A DNA stretch of 64,000 nt, taken from contig NZ_VTOJ01000002.1 of assembly GCF_009176545.1 (NCBI RefSeq), positions 558,001 to 622,000 of the forward strand, in the 5' to 3' direction. The position numbers were made by a program, and so were the translations under genes. The notes under the pieces are model-generated. The model saw only the letters and a program-made list of their open reading frames with translations, was not told the origin of the DNA and ran no database searches. Positions within the stretch are counted from its first letter, which is position 1, and each line of letters starts with the position of its first letter. Below are positions 35,230-58,684 of the stretch, one piece after another. This DNA is from Salinigranum salinum (GTDB lineage Archaea; Halobacteriota; Halobacteria; Halobacteriales; Haloferacaceae).

Positions 35230-35366
35230 GTCGTACACGTCTCACTGGGTGTCTATCGTCTGGAACCGACGAGGTCCCCCGACATCGATTCGATAGGAGG
35301 TGCCGCGTCGAACGTTCGTCCGGAACCTGGTTCTCTTCGGTACACTCGATACAGCCGAGCAAAAGG

Positions 35367-42506: not shown

Positions 42507-43196
42507 TCAGTCGACGTACACGGGCCGCTCGGCGTACGGGATCGGATCTTCGACGCCGAGCCGCTGGAACGCCTGGAGTCGGAACGCACAGGAGTCGCAG
42601 GTTCCACACGCTGGCTCCGTCTCCCGATAGCACGACCACGTGTGTTCGTACGGGACGCCGAGTGCGAGCCCGTGTTCGGCGATGTCGGTCTTCGACCACT
42701 CGACGAACGGTGCCTCGAGACGGATCTCCGTGTCGGGTTTCGTCCCGACGTCGATCACCCGCTGGAACGCCTCGAAGAAGGCCGGTCGACAGTCGGGGTA
42801 GCCCGAGAAATCCTCGGAGTGGGCACCGACGAAGATCGCGGCGGCGTCGTTCGCCTCCGCGTACGACGTGGCCATCGACAGCAGGTTCGCGTTCCGGAAC
42901 GGGACGTACGACGTCGGAATCTCGTCGCGCTCCACGTCCGCGTCCGCGAGCGCGATCCCTTCGTCGGTCAGCGACGACGCCCCGATGCGAGCGAGGTGTT
43001 CGGTCTCGACGTGGAGAAAGTCCTCGGTTCCGACGACCGTCGCCAGCTTTCGAGCCGACTCGAGCTCTTTGGCCTCGGTGCGCTGTCCGTACGACGTGTG
43101 TAAGAAGAGCGGCTCGTAACCGCGGTCCATCGCCTCGTACACTGCCGTCGCACTGTCCATTCCGCCGGAAACCAGGATAACTGCGCTGTCGTTCAT
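42507..43196 (-). CDS. queC: 7-cyano-7-deazaguanine synthase QueC
   Basis: 229 residues from MNDSAVILVSGGMDSATAVYEAM. SGGMDS at 10-15 is the ATP-pyrophosphatase loop. SYVPFRNANLLSMATSYAE and VGAHSEDFSGYPDCRPAFFEAFQRV bind substrate, and WSCYRETEPACGTCDSCAFR holds the four zinc cysteines. It converts 7-carboxy-7-deazaguanine to preQ0 with ATP and ammonia. In haloarchaea preQ0 is inserted in tRNA and becomes archaeosine. Last gene of queD-queE-orf-queC, overlapping the small ORF by four bases. Confidence 0.96.
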   Translation of the reverse strand: MNDSAVILVSGGMDSATAVYEAMDRGYEPLFLHTSYGQRTEAKELESARKLATVVGTEDFLHVETEHLARIGASSLTDEGIALADADVERDEIPTSYVPFRNANLLSMATSYAEANDAAAIFVGAHSEDFSGYPDCRPAFFEAFQRVIDVGTKPDTEIRLEAPFVEWSKTDIAEHGLALGVPYEHTWSCYRETEPACGTCDSCAFRLQAFQRLGVEDPIPYAERPVYVD

Positions 43197-43426
43197 CGTG
43201 ATCTCGCCTCGTCGATCGCTCGCTCGAACCCCCATCTCGCGTCGTTCGGGCACGCGTCACGGGTCGCGCGGGTGGCCGGCTCCGTCGCACGCTCGACCTC
43301 ACGCGTCGTCGCCGACGGGAGGCGCGTTCCTGTCCAGTCCGTCTCCCAGTCGGTGTCTGTCGGGTCCCGGGCGGTGTTCGTCGAGTCTCGATTGCCCGGC
43401 CGTCTCTCGACGTGTTCGCGGGACAT
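43193..43426 (-). CDS. Small uncharacterised ORF between queE and queC
   Basis: 77 residues from ATG 43426. It starts 2 bases after the queE stop and its own stop overlaps the queC start by four bases, as expected for a coupled gene. The product is polar, Arg/Thr-rich and probably disordered until CPNDARWGFERAIDEARSR at the end, the most protein-like part. No family known. It may instead be a spacer that happens to be open in this GC-rich frame. Its placement makes it worth recording. Confidence 0.4.
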   Translation of the reverse strand: MSREHVERRPGNRDSTNTARDPTDTDWETDWTGTRLPSATTREVERATEPATRATRDACPNDARWGFERAIDEARSR

Positions 43427-43428
43427 AG

Positions 43429-44214
43429 TCACGTTCCCGGTGCGTCGTTCCAGAGGTCGACGTGCAGCCGCGGCGTGTAGCGGTAGCCGTGCTCCAGCGC
43501 CAGCGTCGCGGTGAGTTCGCGGGTGTCCGCCAGCCGTTCGCGAGTCGTCCCCTCCGGCATCAAGAGCACGTCACGGTTCCGGATCCGGGCGCTGGTCACG
43601 GACCGAAGCTCCTCGACGAGCGCCTCGATCTCGGCGAGATCCGCTCGCCCCGTCACCACGAACTTGAGCTGGACGTCGTAGGCGTCGACGAGCGCGGCGA
43701 GCGACTCGCAGTCGAGCCGGTCCCGCTCGTGGCGGTCCCGCCACGTCCCGACCGCGGCGTCACCTCCGGCGGGTGGTCTCGTCTCGCTCGGCGTCGACGA
43801 CGCGAGCTTCGGGCTGATCGAGACGAGGTCGATGGGTGCCTCGCGGTAGACCGTCCCGTTCGTCTCGACGGTCGTGTGGTAGCCTCGATCCGACAGCTCG
43901 GTCAAGAGCGGCTCGACGCCGTCGTGAATCATGGGTTCGCCCCCCGTGACGACGACGTGGTCGCCGTCGTAGTCGGCCACTCGAGCGGCGAGAGCCGCCA
44001 CGTCGAACCAGCCGTGTGTCGGCTCCCAGGAGGTGTGGTACGAGTCACAGAACCAGCACCGCAGGTTACAGCCGGAGATCCGAACGAAGGTGCTGGGCAC
44101 GCCGACGAGCGTCCCCTCGCCCTGCAGCGAGTGGAACACCTCGTTGATCGGGAGGGCGTCGGGGCCGACGGCGTCCGGCGCATCGAGCGTCGTGGTGTCC
44201 GCGTTGACGGGCAT
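43429..44214 (-). CDS. queE: 7-carboxy-7-deazaguanine synthase QueE (radical SAM)
   Basis: 261 residues. FHSLQGEGTLVGVPSTFVRISGCNLRCWFCDS carries the 4Fe-4S motif Cys49-x3-Cys53-x2-Cys56 followed by the family serine. HVVVTGGEPMIHDG is the SAM-binding GGEP motif. It contracts the CPH4 ring to 7-carboxy-7-deazaguanine, between QueD and QueC. A Pro/Gly insert (about 140-160, TPSETRPPAGGDAA) is a halophile elaboration. Seven bases separate it from the stop of queD. Confidence 0.95.
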   Translation of the reverse strand: MPVNADTTTLDAPDAVGPDALPINEVFHSLQGEGTLVGVPSTFVRISGCNLRCWFCDSYHTSWEPTHGWFDVAALAARVADYDGDHVVVTGGEPMIHDGVEPLLTELSDRGYHTTVETNGTVYREAPIDLVSISPKLASSTPSETRPPAGGDAAVGTWRDRHERDRLDCESLAALVDAYDVQLKFVVTGRADLAEIEALVEELRSVTSARIRNRDVLLMPEGTTRERLADTRELTATLALEHGYRYTPRLHVDLWNDAPGT

Positions 44215-44220
44215 CGCGAC

Positions 44221-44682
44221 TCACCGACCCGCACGGAGTTCGCCGGTCTCGGCGACCTCGACGGAGACGTCGGAGACGGTGTCCGGGAGAGCGTCTCGCA
44301 GCTGTCGTTCGAGGACCACGGCCATCACCTCGGCGGTCGGTGGATGCTCGAGGACGATCACCGCGTCCCCGTCGCCGGACCGCTCGAACGCCTCGACGAG
44401 CGGGTCACCCTCCTCGAGCAAGAACCGGTGATCCCACCGGTCGACGATCGCGGTCACCGCACCCTTGTCGACGACCCACCCCTCATCGGTGAGTTCGCCC
44501 CGGACCGTGACCGAGATCTCGTAGTTGTGTCCGTGTGGGCGCGAACACTTCCCGTCGTGGTGCTGGATGCGGTGACCCGAGCTGATGCGGATCGGCCGAT
44601 CGTAGCCGACGTGGAGGAGCCGCTCGCCGGCCGAGGAGAGGTCGATATTCTCGGAATCCTCTTCGAGTACGCTTCGTGGCAT
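44221..44682 (-). CDS. queD: 6-carboxy-5,6,7,8-tetrahydropterin synthase QueD
   Basis: 153 residues from ATG 44682 (MPRSVLEEDSENIDLSS). The PTPS-like zinc site is visible in SSGHRIQHHDGKCSRPHGHNYEISV, with His at the first, second and third ligand positions and Cys as base. VVDKGAVTAIVDRWDHRFLLEE and EHPPTAEVMAV follow as in QueD. It makes CPH4 from the triphosphate made by GTP cyclohydrolase. First gene of the que operon, with a TATA-like box about 22-30 bases before ATG. Confidence 0.94.
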   Translation of the reverse strand: MPRSVLEEDSENIDLSSAGERLLHVGYDRPIRISSGHRIQHHDGKCSRPHGHNYEISVTVRGELTDEGWVVDKGAVTAIVDRWDHRFLLEEGDPLVEAFERSGDGDAVIVLEHPPTAEVMAVVLERQLRDALPDTVSDVSVEVAETGELRAGR

Positions 44683-44703
44683 ATCGTGAGATGAGCGAGG
44701 GTC

Positions 44704-45253: not shown

Positions 45254-46036
45254 TCAGTCGAGCGCGTCGAGGTCGGCCGGCGTGTCCACGTCGCGCCTGA
45301 CTCCGGGGTCGCCCGTCTCGACCAGCGCCGAGCGGTCGCCCCGACGGAGGACGTGACGACCGCCCCGGTCGCCCGAGACGGCGACGAGGGCGTCGAAGTG
45401 TGTGCGGTCGAACAGCACGGGGTTCCCCCGTTCGCCCGCGACGGCGGCCGCGAGCGCCGTCCACCGGTTCCCCTCGTACACGTCGACGAGCGCCCGGACG
45501 CTGGCCGGATCGACGCGGGGCATGTCCCCGAGGGCGAACACGGCCGCGTCGACGTCGGGACCGAGCGCCTCGACCCCCGCACGGACGGACGTCGCCTGCC
45601 CCTCGCGGTAGGCGTCGTTCTCGACCACCGTGACCCCGACTCCGTCGAGCGCCGTCGCGACGCGGTCGCCTTCGTAGCCGACGACGGCGACGACCGGATC
45701 GAGTCCCGCGTCGAGGAGCGTTCGCGCCGCGTGACGGACGAGCGGTTCGCCGTCGAGCGTCGCCAGCAGTTTGTTCGCGTCGCCGAACCGCGATCCGGTG
45801 CCCGCGGCGAGGAGGACGCCGGCGACCCGCGACCGTGGCCGATCCCCGGCGTCGGCGTGTCGCTCGTCGGCACCGTCGTCGACGACGCTGTCGCCCGCTC
45901 CGGTCACGCTCCCGGGCGGGTCGACGATGGGAAGGCCGGCTTCGTCGGTCGCGTCGGTCGCGTCGGTCACGTCGGTCTCACCGGTCTCGTCGATCCCGTC
46001 GGTCGCGTCGGTGTCGTCGGTCGTCCGCCCGGTCAT
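45254..46036 (-). CDS. mocA: MobA-like molybdenum cofactor cytidylyltransferase
   Basis: 260 residues from ATG 46036, overlapping the moeA stop. The first 70 residues are an acidic, TDAT-repeat tail absent in the family. The NTP-transferase core begins at about 71: VAGVLLAAGTGSRFGDANKLLATLDGEPL (LAAGxGxRFG, nucleotide binding), then VFALGDMPRVDPASVRALV (Asp-metal motif) and GNPVLFDRTHFDAL. This is the MocA type (NTP_transf_3) that makes molybdopterin cytosine dinucleotide, the cofactor of xanthine-oxidase-family enzymes such as CO dehydrogenase. Its neighbour, the cox cluster, would need this product. Guanylyl transfer (MobA) cannot be excluded. Confidence 0.82.
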   Translation of the reverse strand: MTGRTTDDTDATDGIDETGETDVTDATDATDEAGLPIVDPPGSVTGAGDSVVDDGADERHADAGDRPRSRVAGVLLAAGTGSRFGDANKLLATLDGEPLVRHAARTLLDAGLDPVVAVVGYEGDRVATALDGVGVTVVENDAYREGQATSVRAGVEALGPDVDAAVFALGDMPRVDPASVRALVDVYEGNRWTALAAAVAGERGNPVLFDRTHFDALVAVSGDRGGRHVLRRGDRSALVETGDPGVRRDVDTPADLDALD

Positions 46037-47319
46037 CGCTCGACCGCGTCGTACGGGACGACGTCGACCGGAGAGCCGGCGTCGAGTCCGGTGTCGGTCA
46101 CGACGAAGCCGTCGGCGCGGGTCGCACGCGTACTCGACGAGAGCACGCTCGGATCGAACGTCTCGTCGTACACTTTGAGTGGGGAGTCGACGTGACCCAG
46201 GGGGAACGCCTCGACGAGTTCGCCGGACGCGTCGTCGCCCGAGAGCGTCACCGGGACGACGTAGTCGAACCCCGGCGCACCGATCTCGAACCCCCGTTCG
46301 AGCGTCGCCCGAACCGTCGGCAGCCGCGTCTCTCCGACGAAGAACGGTCGGGCGACGAGCGTGGTGACGGTGTGGGCACCGACCGGTTTGCCGGGGATGG
46401 CGAACGCCACCGCGTCGTGATCCGGGAGTCGAGCGACGGCGATGGGTTTGCCCGGACGGAGTCGAACGCGGTGAAACAGTACCTCGCCGAGGTCCGACAG
46501 CGCCCGGACAGCGTAGTCCTTCTTTCCGACGCTCGTCCCGCCGGTGGTGACGACCACGTCGTATCGCTCGGCGAGTTCGGACACACGATCGCGGACGACG
46601 GCGTAGTCGTCGGGGACCGTCCCCTCGTAGGTGGCGTCGTGGCCCCACGAGTCGACGAGCGCGGCGAGCATCGGCGAGTCGAGATCCGTGTGTCGCCCCT
46701 CGTGGATCTCGGTGCCCGTCGCGAGCAACGCCACCGAGACGGGTCGGTGGACCTCGCACGTCTCGTGGCCGAGATCGCGGAGGAGAATCGCGTCCCGCGG
46801 GGAGAGCCGCTCGCCAGCCGAAAAGAGCGTCTCGCCCGCGGTGACGTTGCTGCCGCGGCGGTAGACGTACGTCCACGGAGTGAGCGCCGGACCGTGCAGT
46901 CGTTCCTCGTCGTCGACGGTCTCGACCGTCGCCTCCTCGCGCTTGAGGACGGCGTTCGCTCCCCGGGGCAGGGGTGCGCCGGTCGCGATGCGGACCGCGT
47001 CGCCGGCGTCGAGCGGGGGCGGGTCGTCCTCGGGGTAGACGGAGACGTCGCGGAGGCGGAGCGGGTAGTCGTCCGTCGCGTCGAAGGCGAAGCCGTCCAT
47101 CGTCGCGTGCGACCGCGGCGGCTGGTCGTCGGGTGCGACGATATCGGCGGCGAGCGTCCGTCCCGCGAGGTCGGCGAGCGGCACGGTCTCGGTCTCGCGG
47201 TCGGCCAGCGCCGCCCCGCGCAGCGCGTTGACCCTGGCGGCGGCGGCGGTTCGGGAGAGCATCACGTCGTGGGGAGGGTCCCCGTCGGGGCTGTCGTCAC
47301 CGTCGGAACTGCGTGTCAC
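46033..47319 (-). CDS. moeA: Molybdopterin molybdenumtransferase MoeA
   Basis: 428 residues. MoeA inserts molybdate in the dithiolene of adenylated molybdopterin. Conserved stretches: SHATMDGFAFDATD, ATGAPLPRGANAVLKREE, DVVVTTGGTSVGKKDYAV (the TGGxSxGxxD active-site loop), and LRPGKPIAVA with AFAIPGKPVGAHT (GxPG near the end, here IPGKPVG). The start MTRSSDGDDS is the first of the frame. Coupled to mocA by an ATGA overlap; both are opposite in orientation to the cox cluster but upstream of it. Confidence 0.94.
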   Translation of the reverse strand: MTRSSDGDDSPDGDPPHDVMLSRTAAAARVNALRGAALADRETETVPLADLAGRTLAADIVAPDDQPPRSHATMDGFAFDATDDYPLRLRDVSVYPEDDPPPLDAGDAVRIATGAPLPRGANAVLKREEATVETVDDEERLHGPALTPWTYVYRRGSNVTAGETLFSAGERLSPRDAILLRDLGHETCEVHRPVSVALLATGTEIHEGRHTDLDSPMLAALVDSWGHDATYEGTVPDDYAVVRDRVSELAERYDVVVTTGGTSVGKKDYAVRALSDLGEVLFHRVRLRPGKPIAVARLPDHDAVAFAIPGKPVGAHTVTTLVARPFFVGETRLPTVRATLERGFEIGAPGFDYVVPVTLSGDDASGELVEAFPLGHVDSPLKVYDETFDPSVLSSSTRATRADGFVVTDTGLDAGSPVDVVPYDAVER

Positions 47320-47419: not shown

Positions 47420-47839
47420 TCACGGAGAGACGTCCAGCGCCGCCGCGACCGCCGCGAGCGTCGTTCGGAGGTCGTCGTCGGCCACGCCGTCGGCCCTGAT
47501 CGAGTAGTGGACGAGCCGCACCATCTCGCCGTCCGGTGCCGACGCGCCGCGGTGGTCGGTCCGTTCGGCGGCGAACGGGGCCGCCTCGAGCGCCGCACGG
47601 ACCGCCGTCTCGGTCGCGTCGGGGATCCTGAGCTGCACGCCGAGTCGGCGGGCGGGCGGTGCCCAGACGACCCCACTGCGGTTGAACGCGGTCACGAGGC
47701 TGTCGTCGCCGAGTCGAGCAGCCGTCAGCGGGTGGAAGAAGTCGACGACGCACTGTCCGCCCGCCTCGGTCCGGCGCGGTCGGACGGGAGCGTCCCCGAG
47801 CAGCTCCTCGACGAGTTCGAAAAACGGCGTACAGTCCAT
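47420..47839 (-). CDS. Conserved-looking hypothetical protein
   Basis: 139 residues. MDCTPFFELVEELLGDAPVRPRRTEAGG opens it, followed by QCVVDFFHPLTAARLGDDSLVTAFNRSGVVWAPPARRLGVQLRIPD and a helical end. The charge pattern and codon use look genuine. No family is recognised and no catalytic motif is clear (single Cys and His residues only). It lies 100 bases upstream of moeA on the same strand, so a link with cofactor synthesis is possible but not shown. Confidence 0.5.
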   Translation of the reverse strand: MDCTPFFELVEELLGDAPVRPRRTEAGGQCVVDFFHPLTAARLGDDSLVTAFNRSGVVWAPPARRLGVQLRIPDATETAVRAALEAAPFAAERTDHRGASAPDGEMVRLVHYSIRADGVADDDLRTTLAAVAAALDVSP

Positions 47840-47988: not shown

Positions 47989-48150
47989 ATGGGAAAACTC
48001 ACCGATACTAAAGTCTCCGAAAAGAACCTCACCACCGTCCCGAAGCCGGTCAGGAACTTCCTCGACGTCGGTGAGGGGGACCGGATCGAGTGGCACGTCG
48101 AGGACGGCCACGTCATCGTCCGCAAGGCCGACACCCCGGTCGACGGCTGA
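47989..48150 (+). CDS. AbrB/SpoVT-type DNA-binding domain protein
   Basis: 53 residues from ATG 47989, the shortest start: MGKLTDTKVSEKNLTTVPKP. The AbrB swapped-hairpin motif is visible: KNLTTVPKPVRNFLDVGEGDRIEWHVEDGHVIVRKAD. Such proteins bind DNA as dimers, either as transition-state regulators or antitoxins. AT-rich GGTATATTC lies just before the ATG. It is 177 bases before coxG on the same strand and could control the cox cluster; no toxin gene adjoins it. Confidence 0.8.
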   Translation: MGKLTDTKVSEKNLTTVPKPVRNFLDVGEGDRIEWHVEDGHVIVRKADTPVDG

Positions 48151-48215: not shown

Positions 48216-48268
48216 GTTTCTGATTATTCGGTGACAGCATACTCCCCGGTTTATCAGAAACTTTTATG
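48216..48268 (+). promoter_or_regulatory. Inverted repeat and TATA-like box upstream of the cox operon
   Basis: GTTTCTGAT at 48216-48224 and ATCAGAAAC at 48253-48261 form a perfect 9-base inverted repeat separated by 28 bases. The right arm runs directly into CTTTTATG (48261-48268), a TATA-like box. This would place the transcription start near 48290, about 35 bases before coxG. The position suits an operator bound by a dimer or a DNA-looping regulator. Confidence 0.6.
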
Positions 48269-48326: not shown

Positions 48327-48917
48327 ATGGAGTTCAGCGGTGAATTCGAACTGGACGGCGTATCGCCGGAGGACGCCTGGATCGTCCTCTCGGATCCGAT
48401 CGCGGTACGAGACGCGCTCAAGGGCTGTCGGTACATCACCAAGATCGAGGACGGCGACTTCAACTTCGACGACTACGAGCCGGACGAGGACGTCGAGACG
48501 CTGCCGGACGCGGATCCCGAAGCAGTCGCCGCGCGCGCCTTCGAGGCGGGCGGCGTCTACGCCGCGCTGATGCAGGTCGGGGTCGGGAGCGTCAAACCCC
48601 GGTTCGAGACACGAGTCACGATCGAAGAGCGCGACTTCCCGCGGATGGTGGCGACCGGCGGGGGGGACGCGTCGGGCAGCAGCTTCGAGATGGAGTCGTG
48701 GATGGAGATCGAGGAGACCGACGACGGCTCCATCGTCAGGTGGGGGACCGAGGCGGACGTCTCCGGGCGGATCGCGCAGCTGGGCGGGCGCGTGATGAAC
48801 CCCGTGGCGGACAAGATCGTCTCCAACTTCTTCGGCAACATCCAGAAACAGATGACCGGCTTCGAGGAGAGCGAGAAGTCGGCCGGCATCCGTGACCGAC
48901 TGAGCGGGCTCATCTGA
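48327..48917 (+). CDS. coxG: CoxG-type SRPBCC protein (CO dehydrogenase subunit G)
   Basis: 196 residues. The fold is SRPBCC: MEFSGEFELDGVSPEDAWIVLSDPIAVRDALKGCRYI is the typical CoxG start. SSFEMESWMEIEETDDGSIVRWGTEADVSGRIAQLGGRVMNPVADKIVSNFFGNIQKQM is the C-terminal half, with the conserved GGR and NFF. In carboxydotrophs CoxG helps anchor CO dehydrogenase to the membrane (established for bacterial CoxG). First gene of the cox cluster; 2 bases separate it from coxM. Confidence 0.9.
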   Translation: MEFSGEFELDGVSPEDAWIVLSDPIAVRDALKGCRYITKIEDGDFNFDDYEPDEDVETLPDADPEAVAARAFEAGGVYAALMQVGVGSVKPRFETRVTIEERDFPRMVATGGGDASGSSFEMESWMEIEETDDGSIVRWGTEADVSGRIAQLGGRVMNPVADKIVSNFFGNIQKQMTGFEESEKSAGIRDRLSGLI

Positions 48918-48919
48918 TC

Positions 48920-49783
48920 ATGAAGGCCGCACAGTTCGAACACCACGAGCCGAACACGCTGGAGGAGGCGGTGAGCCTCCTCGACAGTCTCGACGAGCCG
49001 ACCATTCTCGCGGGTGGACAGAGCCTCATCCCGATGATGCGCTTCCGGCTGGCGCGCCCGGCGACCGTCGTGGATCTGAACCGCATCGACGACCTCGACT
49101 TCCTCACGGAGGAAGACGGCCACCTCCGGATCGGCGCGCTCTGCCGGCACGTCGACGTCGAGGAGTCCGAGATCGTCGCCGAACGCTACGGGAGCTTCGC
49201 GGATGCGGCTCCCCTCGTGGCGGATCCGCAGATCCGCAACCGCGGCACGGTCGTCGGCAGCGTGGCGCAGTCCGACCCGAAAGGTGACTGGGGGACCGTC
49301 CTCCTGGCTCACGACGGCGAGGTCGTCGCCGCCGGGCCCGACGGCGAACGCGTCGTTCCCGCCGAGGAGTTCTTCCTCCTCCCGTACGACAACATGCTGG
49401 ACGAGACGGAGCTGATCACCGAGCTCCGCGTCCCGATCCCCGCCGACGGGGAGGGGAGCGCCTACCACAAGCTGAAGCGGAAGGTGGGCGACTACGCGAT
49501 GGTCGGCGTCGCCGCGCGCGTCGTCCTCGAGGACGACGTCGTCACCGACGCCGGCATCGCTCTGACCGCGGTCGACATCACGAACGTCTCGGTGCCGGAC
49601 GCGGCGGCCGTGCTCGAGGGCGAGACGCCGTCCGGAGCGCTGTTCAAGCGGGCGGGCGAGATCGCCGCCGACGCCGCCAACCCGGAGTCGGACGAACACG
49701 GGAGCGCCGACTACAAGGAGAACATGGTCCGGGTGCTGACCCAGCGAGCCCTCGCGGACGCCGTGGAGCGTGCGACCCAATGA
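48920..49783 (+). CDS. coxM: CO dehydrogenase medium subunit (FAD-binding)
   Basis: 287 residues. [20 protein letters not shown] (AGGQS, FAD pyrophosphate) and [21 protein letters not shown] (the TxGGS-equivalent, here TVVGSV) identify the CO-dehydrogenase flavoprotein, and [18 protein letters not shown] matches the conserved KxxRRxGDFA stretch. It passes electrons from the 2Fe-2S subunit to the quinone pool. The M-S-L order is that of form I CO dehydrogenase. The stop overlaps coxS as ATGA. Confidence 0.94.
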
Positions 49784-50432
49784 GTACGAAGGATATCACC
49801 ATCACCGTCAACGGCACCGAGCGCGAACTGAGCGTCGAACCCCGACGGTTGCTGGTCCACGCCATCCGCGAGGACCTCGACCTCACGGGGACACACATCG
49901 GCTGTGACACCGGCAACTGCGGGGCCTGTACTGTCTACCAGGACGGCGAGGCGATCAAATCCTGTCTCATGTTCGCCGTCCAGGCCGACGGGAGCGACGT
50001 GACGACGGTCGAGGGCATGCAGGACCTCCCCGAGGCGGGGATGGGCCGCTCCGACGACCTCCACCCCATCCAGGAGGGGTTCCGCCAGATGCACGGTCTG
50101 CAGTGCGGCTACTGCACCCCCGGCATGATCATGGCGGGGAAAGCCCTCCTCGAGAAGGACAGCGACCCCTCGGAGGCGACGATCCGCGAGAACATCAGCG
50201 GCAACCTCTGTCGTTGTACGGGCTACCAGAACATCGTCAAATCCATCCAGTACGCCGCGGACGTGTTCAACGACCGCGAACCGCCCGAATCGCCCGTCGA
50301 GAACCCCGATTCCGGCGGGACGGCCGCCGCGGACGGTGGCGTCGACTGTGGCACCGGCTGCGGCTGTGACGCCGGGGTCGATCTGGACCGCGAGTATCCG
50401 GCGGACACCGCCGGCGACGGAGGGGCCGAGCG

Positions 50433-50436
<4 letters not shown>
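49780..50436 (+). CDS. coxS: CO dehydrogenase small subunit (two 2Fe-2S)
   Basis: 218 residues. Plant-type 2Fe-2S cysteines Cys42, 47, 50 and 62 ([10 protein letters not shown] ... SC) and the second cluster Cys109, 112, 144 and 146 (CGYCTPGM ... NLCRCTGYQ) are all present. Residues about 165-218 are an extra C-terminal tail absent from bacterial CoxS (about 160-170 residues); it includes Cys190, Cys194 and Cys196 in [13 protein letters not shown], a possible metal site. Overlaps both neighbours by four bases. Confidence 0.95.
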
Positions 50437-52922
<2,486 letters not shown>

Positions 52923-53100
52923 CCACGCGCTCGGCCCGTCGTCAGTGTCGACGGCGTGATCGGACGTACCGTCGAAGACGACTTCAGCCCCGGAATCGTA
53001 ACCGGACCAGATGTCGACATCGACGCCGACCCCGGGGCCGCAGCGTTCCCCGGTCGCTCCGGATCGGATCGGGGTGACCGGACCCCCACACGCACACCAG

Positions 53101-54297
53101 ATGACAGACGATACCGAGACGGACCACGACGGAGACGGAGATGGAGCGCGCGCGGACGCCGCCTCATCCGCGACGATCGACCGGCTCGCCCGACAGTACG
53201 TGGCGGAGAATCGCCCGTTCGCCCGGGTGACCGTCGTTCGCCGCGAGCCACCGGTGTCCGCGCGCGTCGGCGACCGCGCGGTCGTCACGGCCGACGGCGA
53301 CCTCACCGGGTGGATCGGCGGTGTCGCCTGCGCACAGTCGGTCGCCGTGCGCGAGGCACGGGAAGCGATCCGCAGCGGCGAATCGAAACTGATCGGCATC
53401 GCGCCCGACCCCGCCACGATCGACCGGCCCGGCCTCGACGCGTTCCCGATGACGTGTCACAGTCAGGGGACGATCGAGCTGTTCGTCGAGCCGGTGACGC
53501 CGCTCGCGCGGCTCGTGATCGTCGGCGACTCGCCCATCTCGCGGGCGCTCGCGCGCCTCGCGGCTACCCTCTCGTACGACGTGACCGTCGTCGCCCCCGA
53601 GGGGACGGAGCCGATCGAGGCCGACCGACGGCTCGCGGCGACGGAGGACGCGGCGGCGCTGGCCGAGGAGATCCACGGGGCGACGTGGGTCGTCGCCGCG
53701 TCGATGGGGACGACCGACGACGTCGCCGTCGAGGCCGCGCTCGACGCGGGAGTGCCGTACGTCGGGCTCGTGGCCAGTCGTCGGCGTGCGGACGAACTCT
53801 GTCGTCGAGTGGCCGACCGGACGGGCCGACCGGCCGAGGAGGTCCGGGCGGCGGTCACCTCGCCCGCCGGGGTCGACATCGACGCCCGGACCCCCGAGGA
53901 GATCGGCGTGAGCGTCCTCGCCGAACTCGTCGCCGTCCGCCACGCCGCCGGCGACAGGCCGGTCTCCCGCGCAGGCGCGGACGGCCACGGGGACGACTCC
54001 GGAGACGCCGGGGGAATCGGTGACGACGCCGAGAAAGCCGGTGGCGACGCCGAGGAAGCCGGTGGCGACACCAGGGAAGCCGACGACGGGAGCGGCGAAC
54101 ACGACGCCGTCGACGCCGAAAGCGACACCCGAGAGCCGGCGGTCGCCGTCGATCCCGTCTGCGGCATGGACGTGACGGTGGGCGAGGCGGCGGCCACCGC
54201 CACCCACGAGGGCCGCACGTACCACTTCTGCGGGGAGGGCTGTCGGGACGCGTTCGTCGACGACCCCGAACGGTTCGTGGAGCGTGCGGAGCCATGA
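53101..54297 (+). CDS. coxI: XdhC/CoxI-family maturation protein fused to a YHS domain
   Basis: 398 residues from ATG 53101; a frame from 53011 is open but lacks family-like sequence. Residues about 24-100 are the XdhC N-domain (RVTVVRREPPVSARVGDRAVVTADGDLTGWIGGVAC). About 165-305 is the Rossmann XdhC_C domain (LVIVGDSPISRALARLAATLSYDVTVV). An acidic Gly/Glu repeat (about 310-345, GGDAEEAGGDTREA) links to a C-terminal YHS domain (about 347-395, DPVCGMDVTVGEAA ... FCGEGCRDAF) with metal-binding cysteines. XdhC proteins insert the sulfido ligand in Mo cofactors; YHS domains bind heavy metals such as copper. The fusion suggests a combined Mo-Cu site factor. Overlaps coxD by four bases. Confidence 0.85.
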   Translation: MTDDTETDHDGDGDGARADAASSATIDRLARQYVAENRPFARVTVVRREPPVSARVGDRAVVTADGDLTGWIGGVACAQSVAVREAREAIRSGESKLIGIAPDPATIDRPGLDAFPMTCHSQGTIELFVEPVTPLARLVIVGDSPISRALARLAATLSYDVTVVAPEGTEPIEADRRLAATEDAAALAEEIHGATWVVAASMGTTDDVAVEAALDAGVPYVGLVASRRRADELCRRVADRTGRPAEEVRAAVTSPAGVDIDARTPEEIGVSVLAELVAVRHAAGDRPVSRAGADGHGDDSGDAGGIGDDAEKAGGDAEEAGGDTREADDGSGEHDAVDAESDTREPAVAVDPVCGMDVTVGEAAATATHEGRTYHFCGEGCRDAFVDDPERFVERAEP

Positions 54298-55310
54298 GCG
54301 GAGCCGACGAACCGGCGGCCGACGGCGACCGCGTCTCGCCGGCCGAGGTGAGCGAGTCCGAACTCCGCGATCGGTTCGAGGCCGCGGACTACGTCGCCGA
54401 CGAGACGCTCGTGACGACGGTGTACCTCGCGCTCCGACTGGGCAAGCCGCTGCTCGTCGAGGGCGAACCCGGGAGCGGGAAGACCGAACTCGGGAAGGTG
54501 CTCGCCGAGTCGTTCGACACCGAACTCGTCCGGCTGCAGTGTTACGAGGGGCTCGCCGCGGAGAACACGCTGTACGAGTGGAACTACACGAAACAGCTCC
54601 TGGCCGTCCAGTCCGGCGACGCCGTGGAGGACGGCGTGTTCTCCGAGGAGTACCTCTTCGAGCGGCCGCTCCTGCGTGCGCTCACCGCCGAGGGCGACGT
54701 CCCTCCCGTGCTGCTTATCGACGAGGTCGACCGTGCCGACGAGGAGTTCGAGGCCTTCCTGCTGGAGGTGCTCTCGGACTTCCAGGTGACGATCCCCGAG
54801 TTCGGCACCGTCGCCGCGGAGCGACCGCCGATCGTGGTCATCACCTCCAACCGGACGCGCGGGCTATCGGACGCGCTCAAGCGACGCTGTCTGTACCTCC
54901 ACGTCGACGCCCCCTCGTTCGAGACGGAGGTGGAGATCGTCCGCCGGAAGGTGCCGCAGCTCGACGCGACGGTCGCCGCCGAGGTCTGCGCAATCGTCCA
55001 GGAACTCCGCGAGAACGCCTTCCTCAAGCGGCCCGGCGTCGCCGAGACGCTCGACTGGGCCCGCGCCGTCGCCGAACTCCGCACCCCGGACGACGGCTCC
55101 GACGTCGATGCCGCGGAGATCGAGCGCACCATCGGCACCCTGCTGAAGGAGGTCGAGGACGTCCAGCGGGTCGACTCGGCCCTGCTGGAGCGGCTAGAGC
55201 GCGCCGCGCGGGAGGCCCGGACGCCCACTTCGGCCGCGGACGGGACGGACGCGGACGTCGACACCGGCGAACGCGCGACGATCGACGACGGGGCGACGAG
55301 CGAGAACTGA
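54294..55310 (+). CDS. coxD: CoxD-like MoxR AAA+ ATPase
   Basis: 338 residues. Walker A GEPGSGKT at 57-64 is followed by LLIDEVDRADEEFEAFLLEVLSDFQVTIPEFG (Walker B plus sensor 1 region). ITSNRTRGLSDALKRRCLYLHVD holds sensor 1 Asn and the arginine finger. CoxD in carboxydotrophs reshapes the apo-enzyme so that the Cu-S part of the active site is built (established in Oligotropha). The C-terminal 50 residues are acidic. Overlaps the XdhC/YHS gene and is 2 bases before coxE. Confidence 0.93.
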   Translation: MSGADEPAADGDRVSPAEVSESELRDRFEAADYVADETLVTTVYLALRLGKPLLVEGEPGSGKTELGKVLAESFDTELVRLQCYEGLAAENTLYEWNYTKQLLAVQSGDAVEDGVFSEEYLFERPLLRALTAEGDVPPVLLIDEVDRADEEFEAFLLEVLSDFQVTIPEFGTVAAERPPIVVITSNRTRGLSDALKRRCLYLHVDAPSFETEVEIVRRKVPQLDATVAAEVCAIVQELRENAFLKRPGVAETLDWARAVAELRTPDDGSDVDAAEIERTIGTLLKEVEDVQRVDSALLERLERAAREARTPTSAADGTDADVDTGERATIDDGATSEN

Positions 55311-55312
55311 CG

Positions 55313-56668
55313 ATGGACGGCTTCGACGAGACGCCCGACTTCGTCGCCGCACGCGACCACGTCCTCCGAGAGGTGGTGTTGTTCGCCCGGACCCTCCGCG
55401 AAGAGGGCGTCTCGGTCCCGGCGAACGCGGCGATCTCGGCGACGGAGGCGCTCTGCGCGGTCGGCCTCACCGACCGCGAGGGCGTCCGGGCGGCGACCCA
55501 CGCGACGCTCGTGTCCGACCCGCGCGACACGGACGCCTTCGAGACGCAGTTCCCGGCGTTCTGGCACCGCCTCCGCACGGGGCTGGAGGCGACGGCCACT
55601 GCCGACGACGTGGGCGACCGGGCGGGGAGCGGCGCGCTCTCGACGGCCGACGCCGACGGCACCGACGACGGCGGGGACGCGGCGGACGGGTCGGCAGCGG
55701 CGGCCGGCGGCGATCCCGGCGGCGAGGGCGCGGACGACGAGACGGTGCGCGAGCGTCGACTCGTCGACCACGACGCGGAGACGGGAAGCACGAGCGACGG
55801 CGACAGGGAGCGGAGCCGCGTCTCGACGTACAGCGCGGGTGGCGCGGGGACCCCTGTCGCCGACGAGTCGACTGACGCTCCGCTCGACCGGGCCGCACTC
55901 CGGCGGTTCGAGGGGGCGCTCTCGACGCTCGCCGGCCGACGGTGGAAACCCGGCGGTGGTCGCCGGATCGACGCCCGCCGGGCGCTGCGGTCGAGCGTCG
56001 GCACCGGCGGGACGGTCGTCTCCGTGCCGACCCGCGAGCGAACGCCCGACGCGTTCCGGGCCTGTCTGCTGGTCGACGTGAGCCAGTCCGTGCTCGACAC
56101 GATCGACCGCGGCTTCCTGCTCGCCGTGCTCGACGCGCTCGTCGACGACGGTCGCGGCGTCCGCGTCTTCTTCTTCGACACCGAGATCCGCGAGGTGACG
56201 GCCGTCTTCGTGGACTCGCGTGGCGACCCGGCGGCGGCGCTCGAACGCGCCGAGGTCGCGTGGGGCGGCGGGACGCGAATCGGCGACGCCATCGCCGACC
56301 TCCGGCGACGGTGGCCCGGCGCGGTCGACCGGCGGACGGTGACGCTCGTCGTGAGCGACGGACTGGACGTGGGAGCAGTGGACGACCTCGAACGCGGGAT
56401 GACGTGGCTCGCGCGGCGGTCGCGGGCGGTCGTCTGGCTGAACCCCCTCGCGGCCTCCGCCCGGTACGAGCCGACCTGCCGGGGGATGGCGGCGGCGCTC
56501 CCGTACGTCGACGGCCTGTTCGCCTTCGCCGGCTCCGACGACCTCGACGAGGTGGCGCGACAGCTGTCGAGACACGGTCTCGGCGGCCCGATCGGCTACG
56601 AACACGACTTCCGCGACCGAACGACCGCGGCAAGAGCGGCGGAGGCCGGCACTGGAGGGACGAGCTGA
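55313..56668 (+). CDS. coxE: CoxE-like VWA domain protein
   Basis: 451 residues from ATG 55313. An N-terminal helical domain (about 10-95) with a Gly/Asp-rich linker (about 96-190) is followed by a C-terminal von Willebrand A domain starting near 248. The MIDAS motif is Asp255-x-Ser-x-Ser259 (LVDVSQS), and TLVVSDGLDVGAV supplies the later Asp. Bacterial CoxE works with the MoxR ATPase CoxD as a substrate adaptor. Its ATG begins two bases after the coxD stop. Confidence 0.92.
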   Translation: MDGFDETPDFVAARDHVLREVVLFARTLREEGVSVPANAAISATEALCAVGLTDREGVRAATHATLVSDPRDTDAFETQFPAFWHRLRTGLEATATADDVGDRAGSGALSTADADGTDDGGDAADGSAAAAGGDPGGEGADDETVRERRLVDHDAETGSTSDGDRERSRVSTYSAGGAGTPVADESTDAPLDRAALRRFEGALSTLAGRRWKPGGGRRIDARRALRSSVGTGGTVVSVPTRERTPDAFRACLLVDVSQSVLDTIDRGFLLAVLDALVDDGRGVRVFFFDTEIREVTAVFVDSRGDPAAALERAEVAWGGGTRIGDAIADLRRRWPGAVDRRTVTLVVSDGLDVGAVDDLERGMTWLARRSRAVVWLNPLAASARYEPTCRGMAAALPYVDGLFAFAGSDDLDEVARQLSRHGLGGPIGYEHDFRDRTTAARAAEAGTGGTS

Positions 56669-56669
56669 G

Positions 56670-57494
56670 ATGTCGGACGCGCTCGTCGCGACGGTACGCG
56701 ACGCGCTCTCGGACCGCGCGCGGGCAGCGGACGACCCCCGCGTGACGGTCGGCGACCGCGTCGTCCTCGTCGAGTGCTCCCATCCAGCCCACGGCTCGCT
56801 CGCGGGCGTGGCCCACAGGCCCGACCGGACGGTGGAGGCGTTCGACCCCGACGCCGACCGACGCGTCGTGGATCTCGCCGGAGAGTCGACGGGGGCTCCA
56901 CACGGGAGCGTCGCCCGGGCGGTCGGCCTCGCGACGCTGAACGCGCTGTCGGCCCCCGACATCGGGTGGCTCGTCGGCGACCCGATGGCGGCGCTCTCGG
57001 CCGACGTCGACGTCGTCGCCACCGTCGGGCTGTTCCGTCCCGCGTTCCGGAAGTTCGGGAACGTCGCGGTCCGGGTCGTCGAGCGCGACCCAGAGAGGAT
57101 CGACCTGGCCTCCCTGCCCGGGGCGGTCCCGACCACGCTCTTCTCGCCCGACGAGGCCGCGGCCGCGTTCGACGGCGCCGACGTCTGCTTCGTCACGGGG
57201 TCGACGCTGGTGTACGGCGGCGTCGACGACTACCTCGCGGCGGCGGCGGACGTCCCGCTCGTCGTCCTGATCGGCGCGACTGCCTCGCTCCTGCCGGAGC
57301 CGGTGTTCGAGCGCGGTGTCGACCTGCTGGCCGGGGCGCGAGTACGGGACGCGAGCCGGGTCCGCGAACGCGTCGTCGCGGGCGACTGCGGGACCGACCT
57401 CCACGACGCGGGGCTGCAGAAGGTGTACTGCCCCGCGACGGCGACGCTTCCGGGCGTACAGTTACCAAGCACCAGACCCGATACCCAACAATGA
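56670..57494 (+). CDS. DUF4213/DUF364 putative heavy-metal chelation protein
   Basis: 274 residues. The N-terminal part (about 1-85; VRDALSDRARAADDPRVTVGDRVVLVE) fits DUF4213 and the C-terminal Rossmann-like part (about 100-265; DVVATVGLFRPAFRKFGNVAVRVVERDPERIDL, then GADVCFVTGSTLVYGG) fits DUF364, described as a heavy-metal chelation domain on structural grounds. Such proteins occur with molybdo- or nickel-enzyme genes. Its position between coxE and the second XdhC gene, one base after the former and overlapping the latter by four, suggests a part in metal loading of CO dehydrogenase. Direct evidence is lacking. Confidence 0.75.
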   Translation: MSDALVATVRDALSDRARAADDPRVTVGDRVVLVECSHPAHGSLAGVAHRPDRTVEAFDPDADRRVVDLAGESTGAPHGSVARAVGLATLNALSAPDIGWLVGDPMAALSADVDVVATVGLFRPAFRKFGNVAVRVVERDPERIDLASLPGAVPTTLFSPDEAAAAFDGADVCFVTGSTLVYGGVDDYLAAAADVPLVVLIGATASLLPEPVFERGVDLLAGARVRDASRVRERVVAGDCGTDLHDAGLQKVYCPATATLPGVQLPSTRPDTQQ

Positions 57495-58684
57495 CCAACG
57501 ACACGCACGATTCGGACGAGACGACCGACCCGACCGGCACAGCGGAGACGGACGCCAACTGGAGCGTGCCCGAGACGGAGGTGCTGTCGCGGGCGCACGA
57601 CCTCCTCGACAGCGACCGCCGCGGCGTCCTCGCGACGATCATCGCCGTCGAAGGGAGCGCCTACCGGCGCCCGGGGGCGAAGATGGTCATCCCCGAGGAC
57701 GGCGAGGGGGTCGGTCACATCACCGCCGGCTGTCTGGAAGAGGAGGTCCAGCGCCTCGCGAGCGAGGTGCTCGCCGCGGGCGAACCACGGGTCGAGCGCT
57801 ACGACCTCATGCCCGAGGCGGACGACGACGTCTGGGGGCTGGGCGTCGGCTGTAACGGCGTCATCGAGGTGCTGCTCGAACCGCTCGACGAGACGTACCG
57901 TCCCGCCGTCGAGGCCGTCTCGGCAGGGAGAGACGTCGGCGTGCTCACCGTCGTCGACGGCGACGGCGAGGGCGCGCGAGCCTACTACGACCCCGAAACC
58001 GACGCGTTCGATCTCCACGGAGGGTTCGACGCCGACCTCGCCGAGCGGGTCCGGGAGGCGGCGGCGACGCTCACGGCACAGGGTCGTGCGGACTCCGTCG
58101 AGGTCGATGGCATTACGGTGTTCGTCGACGGCCTGGCCGCGCCCGCGACGCTCGTCGTCGTCGGCACCGGCCACGACGTCGGTCCGATCGCCGAACTCGG
58201 CGCGCAGGCCGACTTCCGGGTGACGGTCGTGGGGTTCCGGGGGGCCGCCGCGAAAGCCGACCGGTTCCCCGCGGCGAGCGAGGTCGTCTCGACATCGCCC
58301 GCACGGATGACCGAGGCGTTCGACTTCGACGCCGAGACGTACGTCGTGGTGGCGACGCACAACTTCGTCGACGACCGGCTCGCCGTCGAATCCCTCCTCG
58401 CCGACACGCCCGTCCCGTACGTCGGGCTGATGGGGCCGCGCGAGCGGTTCGAGGAGATGCTCGACGCGTTCGCCGAGGAGGGGACGACGTTCACCGACGC
58501 GCAGCTCGACCGCCTGTACACGCCGGTCGGTCTCGACCTGGGCGGCGGCTCGCCGTACCAGATCGCCCTCTCGATCGTCGCGGAGGCGCTCGCGGTGAAG
58601 AACGATCGCCAGCCACAGCACCTGAAAGCCAGAGAAGGGACGATTCACGACCGGGTGGAGCTGTCGACCGACGGCGGCCGGTGA
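57491..58684 (+). CDS. coxF: XdhC/CoxI-family maturation protein, second copy
   Basis: 397 residues from ATG 57491, overlapping the previous stop. The N-terminal domain, about 30-110, shows LATIIAVEGSAYRRPGAKMVIPEDGEGVGHITAGCLEEEV, the XdhC motif with the typical GSxYRRPGA and GxxSGGCLE-like (ITAGCLEEE) parts. DDVWGLGVGCNGVIEVLLEPL and a C-terminal Rossmann domain LVVVGTGHDVGPIAELGAQADFRVTVV with YVGLMGPRERFEEML follow. It probably sulfurates or loads the Mo cofactor into CoxL. Unlike the first XdhC gene it has no YHS domain. It ends the cox cluster. The symbol is given by analogy with the second XdhC-type gene of bacterial cox clusters. Confidence 0.88.
   Translation: MTNDTHDSDETTDPTGTAETDANWSVPETEVLSRAHDLLDSDRRGVLATIIAVEGSAYRRPGAKMVIPEDGEGVGHITAGCLEEEVQRLASEVLAAGEPRVERYDLMPEADDDVWGLGVGCNGVIEVLLEPLDETYRPAVEAVSAGRDVGVLTVVDGDGEGARAYYDPETDAFDLHGGFDADLAERVREAAATLTAQGRADSVEVDGITVFVDGLAAPATLVVVGTGHDVGPIAELGAQADFRVTVVGFRGAAAKADRFPAASEVVSTSPARMTEAFDFDAETYVVVATHNFVDDRLAVESLLADTPVPYVGLMGPRERFEEMLDAFAEEGTTFTDAQLDRLYTPVGLDLGGGSPYQIALSIVAEALAVKNDRQPQHLKAREGTIHDRVELSTDGGR

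What the first reader, a model, noticed from the sequence alone, without database searches (positions are those of the whole stretch)
48327..58684. Complete form I aerobic CO dehydrogenase cluster in a haloarchaeon
CoxL contains the exact AYxCSFR signature (AYRCSFR, Cys391) of the Mo-Cu form I enzyme, with coxM-coxS-coxL order and the maturation genes coxD, coxE and two XdhC/CoxI-type genes, nearly all overlapping or within a few bases. mocA and moeA, needed for the cytosine dinucleotide form of the cofactor, adjoin on the other strand. This predicts a working CO oxidation system in a salt-loving archaeon, where it is known but little studied.
Basis: partly seen in the sequence, partly recalled or inferred. 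Interest (0 to 1): 0.75.

Follow-up and report, generated by a model that had tools for sequence, protein, structure and literature searches.

The report
Haloarchaeal carbon monoxide oxidation gene cluster
This is an intact gene cluster of a known type that should let a salt-loving archaeon use carbon monoxide, and it carries an overlooked copper-type domain on one helper protein, a clue to how copper gets into this enzyme.

Summary
Window 48327-58684 encodes an intact form I (Mo-Cu) CO dehydrogenase operon: CoxL scores 1247.8 bits on TIGR02416 (cut-off 991), has AYRCSFR (Cys391) and falls in the form I clade; moeA-mocA diverge upstream. Form I in haloarchaea is already in print, so the cluster as such is ordinary.

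Strong CoxF matches occur in exactly the 28 of 292 genomes of the class that have form I CoxL. YHS is in 95 of 99 aligned CoxF from many phyla and in 0 of 54 CoxI-type XdhC; 12 of 12 alphaproteobacterial plasmid CoxF, the Oligotropha model included, lack it. Its Asp and three Cys have the spacing of a published copper-responsive YHS domain, and published coxF mutants make copper-free enzyme. I propose that the tethered YHS domain helps deliver copper (inferred). DUF364 sits in 27 of 28 haloarchaeal form I clusters and the CoxS tail in 28 of 29; their roles are open.

The parts
45254..46036 (-). mocA-type Mo cofactor cytidylyltransferase gene
   Evidence: TIGR03310 133 bits (cut-off 186.45), best of the models listed; MobA model 36 bits; coordinates
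46033..47319 (-). moeA, molybdopterin molybdotransferase (start codon unsure)
   Evidence: PF03453 116 bits, PF00994 98.5 bits
48327..48917 (+). coxG, SRPBCC-type membrane/quinone partner
   Evidence: PF06240 57.8 bits against cut-off 22.2
48920..49783 (+). coxM, FAD subunit
   Evidence: PF00941 and PF03450 over cut-off
49780..50436 (+). coxS, 2x[2Fe-2S] subunit, 218 aa
   Evidence: PF01799 and PF00111 over cut-off; 8 cluster Cys kept
50344..50370 (+). Cys motif in the C-terminal tail of CoxS (Cys190, Cys194, Cys196)
   Evidence: looser motif in 28 of 29 haloarchaeal form I CoxS, 0 of 94 CoxS of the other loci, 0 of 11 haloarchaeal form II-type CoxS
50433..52922 (+). coxL, Mo-Cu subunit, 829 aa, AYRCSFR at 388-394
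   Evidence: TIGR02416 1247.8 bits against 991.15; motif; tree
53011..54297 (+). coxF with C-terminal YHS domain (XdhC_CoxI, XdhC_C, YHS), 428 aa; start may be 53101
   Evidence: Pfam; CoxF-type by profile; 37% identity to Oligotropha CoxF
53449..53463 (+). MxCxS motif of CoxF (Met147, Cys149, Ser151)
   Evidence: Met 91, Cys 98, Ser 96 of 99 CoxF; CoxI-type has G-C-[NGA]-G here
54148..54294 (+). YHS domain of CoxF (Asp381, Cys384, Cys407, Cys411)
   Evidence: PF04945 46.9 bits against 30.3; model confident over about 350-396 of the 398-residue chain used
54294..55310 (+). coxD, MoxR-type AAA+ ATPase
   Evidence: PF07728 49.1 bits against 22; matches CoxD in other form I loci
55313..56668 (+). 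coxE, VWA protein
   Evidence: PF05762 VWA_CoxE 135.6 bits against 26.4
56670..57494 (+). DUF364 protein (putative heavy-metal chelation family)
   Evidence: PF04016 75.1 bits against 23; in 27 of 28 haloarchaeal form I clusters
57491..58684 (+). second XdhC gene, CoxI/XdhC type
   Evidence: PF13478 112.1 and PF02625 81.2 bits, no YHS

Best explanation
An intact haloarchaeal form I Mo-Cu CO dehydrogenase operon. CoxLSM oxidises CO to CO2 at a Mo-S-Cu site and passes electrons through [2Fe-2S] clusters and FAD; CoxG brings the enzyme to the membrane; MoeA and MocA make the cytidylylated Mo cofactor; CoxD serves sulfuration of Mo, CoxE and CoxF copper insertion, and the CoxI-type XdhC cofactor handling (roles from the Oligotropha work and family knowledge). 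Shown here: gene content, domains, active-site residues, form I phylogeny, and the tie between CoxF and form I. Inferred: CoxF carries copper on its YHS domain (Asp381, Cys384, Cys407, Cys411), held on a flexible tether, and passes it, perhaps by way of the MxCxS site of its XdhC core, to the Mo-SH next to CoxL Cys391. The stated confidence is for the form I operon; for the YHS copper step alone I give about 0.55.
For: Form I: TIGR02416 over cut-off; 28 of 292 class genomes over cut-off at 1203-1248 bits, next match 768; AYRCSFR in 28 of 28; tree; active-site residues. CoxF: strong matches in exactly the same 28 genomes; best match elsewhere 89 bits. YHS in 95 of 99 CoxF and 0 of 54 CoxI-type XdhC; in 65 of 66 complete CoxF of the 80 genome-contig loci. 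Ligand Cys kept in 95-96 of 99; spacing equal to the copper-responsive M. phlei YHS domain. Model: confident core, low-confidence linker 289-345, confident YHS. Published: coxF mutant enzyme has 0.043 Cu against 1.47, Mo normal (PMC4240915, section part read).
Against: Oligotropha makes Cu-loaded enzyme with a CoxF that has no YHS, and so presumably do the other alphaproteobacteria (12 of 12 listed plasmid records stop short of YHS) and Nonomuraea; YHS is therefore not indispensable. The haloarchaeal cluster L044 is otherwise like the rest but lacks it. CoxE is just as needed for copper. No metal or activity data exist for any YHS-bearing CoxF in what I read. The bacterial sample is skewed to Thermomicrobium-like CoxL.
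Confidence: 0.93

Rival explanations
1. The YHS domain of CoxF is a sensory, structural or docking site (Cu sensing, Zn, contact with CoxE or CoxL) and not the copper donor; copper comes through the XdhC core or CoxE.
For: Oligotropha CoxF works without it; the published YHS example is called a sensor (PMC4626032, abstract); TRASH relatives bind other metals (Cd in L24e, same paper, passages).
Against: The domain is on CoxF, whose loss removes copper, and not on the CoxI-type sister; long flexible linker.
Confidence: 0.3
2. The DUF364 protein of the haloarchaeal clusters acts on the molybdenum or cofactor side (Mo or pterin handling), not on copper.
For: Structure paper suggests a pterin- or flavin-like ligand and finds molybdate and tungstate transport neighbours (PMC2954201, section part read); in G213 it stays with moeA, mocA, coxD, coxE and xdhC2 where coxGMSL and coxF were not found (L175).
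Against: Two short form I clusters keep coxF and DUF364 with no coxD, coxE or xdhC2 found in the 20 kb read (L046, L063); it is absent from the 13 form II-type loci read.
Confidence: 0.4
3. The enzyme is not a CO dehydrogenase but another xanthine oxidase-family hydroxylase (form II type or glyceraldehyde type).
For: CoxM and CoxS also match glyceraldehyde dehydrogenase models, though under their cut-offs.
Against: TIGR02416 passed with a wide margin, other CoxL models under cut-off; AYRCSFR; form I clade.
Confidence: 0.02
4. The operon is intact but silent or used only in rare conditions, so the strain shows no measurable CO uptake.
For: No expression data here; the cluster is patchy in the class (28 of 292).
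Against: All frames open and tightly coupled; form I haloarchaea tested in print oxidise CO (PMC5743682, passages).
Confidence: 0.08

Closest known systems
cox cluster of Afipia (Oligotropha) carboxidovorans OM5, plasmid pHCG3 (L079)
   Same: coxMSL order, coxD, coxE, coxF, coxG and coxI-type genes; CoxL 57%, CoxS 60%, CoxF 37% identity
   Different: OM5: CoxF without YHS, coxG after coxF, MHYT genes, no DUF364 and no moeA-mocA in the stretch read, CoxS without the Cys tail
Natronorubrum bangense megaplasmid form I cluster (L080)
   Same: Same gene order with moeA-mocA opposite, CoxF-YHS, DUF364, CoxS tail; CoxL 77.8%
   Different: Only divergence in sequence and flanking genes; annotated in the record as XdhC family, DUF364 etc.
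Thermomicrobium roseum form I cluster (L081)
   Same: coxMSL followed at once by CoxF with C-terminal YHS; CoxL 63%
   Different: No DUF364, coxD, coxE or coxG found in the 22 kb read, CoxS without the Cys tail
YHS domain of Mycobacterium phlei adenylyl cyclase (PMC4626032)
   Same: Asp-x2-Cys-x22-Cys-x3-Cys ligand set at a C-terminus
   Different: Fused to a cyclase and thought to be a copper sensor; not linked to CO dehydrogenase
DUF364 structures (3L5O in PMC2954201; 3NPG)
   Same: PF04016 family; weak match to 3NPG, E 0.97
   Different: Neighbours of the family in print are metal transport genes, not cox

Membership tests
Form I (Mo-Cu) aerobic CO dehydrogenase | CoxL over the TIGR02416 cut-off | tested here: met
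   1247.8 against 991.15 bits
Form I (Mo-Cu) aerobic CO dehydrogenase | AYxCSFR with the Cu-binding Cys | tested here: met
   AYRCSFR 388-394; 28 of 28 haloarchaeal form I
Form I (Mo-Cu) aerobic CO dehydrogenase | CoxL inside the form I clade | tested here: met
   support 100 (SH-aLRT only, quick tree, 64 rows)
Form I (Mo-Cu) aerobic CO dehydrogenase | coxM-coxS-coxL order, other catalytic residues and cluster Cys | tested here: met
Form I (Mo-Cu) aerobic CO dehydrogenase | Mo-S-Cu centre and CO oxidation measured | not testable with these tools
   no bench data
CoxF | XdhC-type protein nearer to CoxF than to CoxI, in a form I cluster | tested here: met
   Oligotropha CoxF scores 288 on my CoxF profile against 55 on the CoxI-type one and its CoxI the reverse, 33 against 292, but both were among the seeds; window CoxF was a seed too (384 bits); 37% identity
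CoxF | Needed for copper insertion | not testable with these tools
   shown only for Oligotropha in print
YHS domain (PF04945) | Over the curated cut-off with the Asp/Cys ligand set | tested here: met
   46.9 against 30.3 bits; D381, C384, C407, C411
YHS domain (PF04945) | Copper binding | not testable with these tools
   inferred from PMC4626032
DUF364 (PF04016) | Over the curated cut-off | tested here: met
   75.1 against 23 bits
MocA (Mo cofactor cytidylyltransferase) | Over the TIGR03310 cut-off | tested here: not met
   133 against 186.45 bits; best of the models listed, so strict membership is not shown
MadB/MadC ATPase-VWA pair (considered for coxD/coxE) | Over the NF047784 / NF047783 cut-offs | tested here: not met
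   257 against 475 and 65 against 600 bits

The most novel reading that the evidence does not exclude
A CoxF that carries copper on a tethered YHS domain is the general, probably ancestral copper-insertion factor of Mo-Cu CO dehydrogenase, from haloarchaea to Chloroflexota and Bacteroidota, and the alphaproteobacterial system on which the maturation model rests is a reduced version that lost the domain. Haloarchaea have added two parts of their own to the same job: the DUF364 protein and a Cys-rich CoxS tail that could hold or receive copper.
Probability: 0.35. Interest if true: 0.65.

Novelty: new variant of a known kind. Interest (0 to 1): 0.42.

Why it matters
[quoted passage not shown] A copper-type domain fused to CoxF in 65 of 66 complete CoxF of the genome-contig loci gives a small, specific, testable candidate for the donor. 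It also suggests that the usual model organism may be atypical for this step, and names genes (coxF-YHS; DUF364 for haloarchaea) to include when active enzyme is made in another host. The cluster itself adds one more probable CO user in brines, which is already an accepted picture.

Tried and rejected
Form II or other hydroxylase: rejected on model score, motif and tree. CoxF-YHS as a haloarchaeal peculiarity: my first idea, dropped when Thermomicrobium roseum CoxF and 65 of 66 complete CoxF of the genome-contig loci showed the same domain. DUF364 as strictly form I-specific: weakened by six genomes that have DUF364 and no form I CoxL. Around three of the six (G085, G052, G001) ten neighbouring proteins were scanned and none was a cox protein; one beside the G085 copy is siroheme decarboxylase-like. 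Around G213 moeA, mocA, coxD, coxE and xdhC2 stand without the enzyme (L175). Around G277 and G007 I found only the DUF364 hit with my cox profiles. A separate YHS gene in YHS-less clusters: none picked up by my YHS profile in L079 or L183-L187, but that profile was made from two sequences. A fold search with the CoxF model gave XdhC structures (2we7, 2we8, 3on5) as the top six; nothing for the YHS part is among the 50 rows printed. A test in another phylum with the genome search could not be run.

Limits of the counts. Of the 80, 9 had no CoxF in the DNA held and 5 had one cut by a contig end; 66 were complete (YHS there by my two-seed profile). The Pfam count uses 99 rows: 29 haloarchaeal, 4 bacterial plasmid and 66 genome contigs CoxF. 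Left out of it: L084 (no YHS), L183-L187 (no YHS) and L188 (YHS by my profile); with them it is 96 of 106. Pfam's four misses are not named by the call; by alignment L079, L044, L117 and L082 lack the second YHS Cys. Of the 19 plasmid records with CoxL at 55% identity or more, CoxF runs into YHS in 6 (Natronorubrum, Thermomicrobium, Paraburkholderia, two Caballeronia, Deinococcus) and stops before it in 13 (12 alphaproteobacteria, Nonomuraea). In the class scan with the whole CoxF, 194 of 292 genomes have some match at E 0.001 or better, by other XdhC or stand-alone YHS proteins; the claim is only about matches of 164 bits and more. The 94 CoxS of the other loci include a few form II copies that lie in the same stretches. 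The class genomes are 292 drawn from a larger group, and G000 has 6.49% contamination by the tool's figure. The tree is a quick one with SH-aLRT support alone; that haloarchaea branch first in form I is not safe. On it YHS presence (45 of 53 rows) needs 4 changes, which cannot tell gain from loss.

Papers. One search found no paper with both 'YHS domain' and 'XdhC', none with both 'YHS' and 'carbon monoxide dehydrogenase'; (CoxF, CoxI, copper) listed no title about such a fusion, and of their listings I opened only PMC4240915 and PMC2997495. Subscription journals are mostly not held, so this is not proof of novelty. on the CoxS tail listed nothing apt by title; none of those papers was opened.
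Full report
Observation. Pfam and NCBIfam name them coxG, coxM, coxS, coxL, an XdhC-type gene, coxD, coxE, a DUF364 gene and a second XdhC-type gene, with moeA and a mocA-type gene on the other strand. CoxL is 829 aa, has AYRCSFR with Cys391 and scores 1247.8 bits on TIGR02416 against a cut-off of 991.15. The four best solved structures by sequence are CO dehydrogenases. Aligned with Oligotropha CoxL (57% identity), Gln240, Cys388 and Glu763 are kept, and CoxS keeps the eight Cys of Oligotropha CoxS.

Form I status. Of 292 genomes of the class, 28 pass the TIGR02416 cut-off, at 1203-1248 bits; the next match has 768. The 28 CoxL all read AYRCSFR. Of 13 sub-cut-off loci read, two from the window's own genome, 11 have AYRGAGR, one PYRGAGR and one matched no pattern. 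A 64-row tree puts the window protein with 12 other haloarchaeal rows (support 100) inside form I (100), apart from 10 form II-type rows; its nearest rows are L057 (86% identity) and L063, both from other families. Form I in haloarchaea is in print: CO-oxidising isolates (PMC5743682, passages; the addendum PMC6548880, seen in the listing, says one of the two was a mixed culture), Bonneville MAGs (PMC9765009, passages) and a halobacterial CoxL clade (PMC6794299, passages). The cluster as such is one more member.

The XdhC gene after coxL has the two XdhC domains and a C-terminal YHS domain (46.9 bits against 30.3). It is the CoxF of the cluster: 37% identical to Oligotropha CoxF and, with a profile made from the XdhC part alone, CoxF-type rather than CoxI-type (it and Oligotropha CoxF were among the seeds). 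Used whole as a query, it gives matches of 164 bits or more in exactly the 28 form I genomes of 292; the best match in the other 264 is 89 bits. Of 80 form I loci from other prokaryotes, 66 have a complete CoxF and 65 of these carry YHS. By record titles they include Chloroflexota, Acidobacteriota, Armatimonadota, Gemmatimonadota, Bacteroidota, Myxococcota, Verrucomicrobiota, Bacillota, SAR324, Thermoplasmatota and Nitrososphaerota. With Pfam, YHS is in 95 of 99 aligned CoxF and in 0 of 54 CoxI-type XdhC. It is missing from Oligotropha, from L117, from the haloarchaeon L044 and from Nonomuraea; Deinococcus L082 has a degenerate one. Of 19 form I plasmid records, CoxF runs into YHS in 6 and stops before it in 13, namely 12 alphaproteobacteria and Nonomuraea.

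Ligands and shape. Cys384, Cys407 and Cys411 are kept in 96, 95 and 96 of 99 CoxF; Asp381 is Asp in 76 and Asn in 18. The window's spacing Asp-x2-Cys-x22-Cys-x3-Cys, also found in 76 of 99 with Asp or Asn and in 18 more with x21, equals that of the M. phlei adenylyl cyclase YHS domain (D178, C181, C204, C208); with Mg as cofactor that enzyme was switched on by Cu and by none of six other ions tested (PMC4626032, abstract and passages). In the XdhC core the motif Met-x-Cys-x-Ser marks CoxF: Met in 91, Cys in 98, Ser in 96 of 99, where CoxI-type proteins have G-C-[NGA]-G. The AlphaFold model (46-row alignment, mean pLDDT 83) has a confident core, a low-confidence linker (289-345) and a confident YHS domain: a small metal-type domain on a tether.

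Link to copper. In Oligotropha, enzyme from a coxF mutant has 0.043 Cu against 1.47 in wild type grown alike, with normal Mo and sulfane sulfur 1.40 against 1.53; a coxE mutant has no Cu (PMC4240915, part of section read). The authors assign copper supply to CoxF from sequence motifs and leave the mechanism open. The fusion reported here is independent support: a copper-type domain is joined to this XdhC protein and not to its CoxI-type sister. That the domain is the donor remains inference. The strongest point against is that Oligotropha does without it.

A PF04016 gene lies between coxE and the second XdhC gene. It is in 27 of the 28 haloarchaeal form I clusters (not L060), in none of the 13 form II-type loci and in none of the 80 other form I loci. 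Over cut-off it occurs in 33 of 292 genomes, 27 with form I and six without. One of the six, G213, has moeA, mocA, coxD, coxE, DUF364 and xdhC2 together but no coxGMSL or coxF in the 20 kb read, and no CoxL over cut-off in the genome, so DUF364 is tied to the enzyme less closely than coxF is. Two short form I clusters, L046 and L063, keep coxF and DUF364 while coxD, coxE and xdhC2 were not found in the 20 kb read. The structure paper suggests heavy-metal chelation or a pterin- or flavin-like ligand (PMC2954201, abstract and part of section 3). I lean slightly to a Mo-side role, with a copper role possible.

Haloarchaeal form I CoxS has a C-terminal tail with a Cys motif: C-G-x3-C-C-G-G in 25 of 29 loci and a looser form in 28 of 29 (not L063); the window has Cys190, Cys194 and Cys196. 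None of the 94 CoxS read in the other loci and none of 11 haloarchaeal form II-type CoxS has a Cys there. A metal site, a redox switch and a lipid attachment point are all possible.

Verdict. An intact form I CO dehydrogenase operon, of a known kind and in a lineage known to have it, with an accessory set that departs from the Oligotropha model. The most useful new point is the CoxF-YHS fusion. I found no paper that mentions it, within a library that lacks most subscription journals.

Noticed in passing
L115:14609-16885 -, L128:12402-13988 +, L148:12815-14506 -, L158:9983-12742 -, L159:3853-5625 +: Single open frames match MocA, CoxF and YHS together, a possible fusion of cofactor cytidylyltransferase, CoxF core and YHS in archaea and one acidobacterium.
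   Followed up: no
L175:4988-11426 (genome G213): moeA-mocA facing coxD-coxE-DUF364-xdhC2, with no coxGMSL or coxF found in the 20 kb read: a form I remnant or a maturation set used by other hydroxylases.
   Followed up: partly
window 47989-48150 (+): 53-aa frame that looks like an AbrB-type DNA-binding protein by eye, between moeA and coxG; a gene so annotated lies just beyond mocA in N. bangense.
   Followed up: no
window 47420-47839 (-): 139-aa frame between moeA and coxG with no Pfam match.
   Followed up: partly
window 42507-44691 (-): A queC-like gene (by eye), a radical SAM gene and a 6-pyruvoyl tetrahydropterin synthase gene: a likely deazaguanine (archaeosine) set beside mocA.
   Followed up: partly
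window 33052-35238 (-): Heavy-metal P-type ATPase with an HMA domain, 13 kb from the cox genes; its metal is unknown.
   Followed up: no
window 48256-48268 (+): AGAAACTTTTATG resembles a haloarchaeal BRE/TATA element about 60 bases before coxG (by eye).
   Followed up: no
L077, L078 (own genome, C1:1409232-1411487 and C2:161361-163646): The window's genome also holds CoxL paralogues under the cut-off with the form II-type AYRGAGR motif.
   Followed up: partly
L145:3750-6152 (+): CoxL of this uncultured Saprospirales MAG is split into two frames, by frameshift or assembly error.
   Followed up: no
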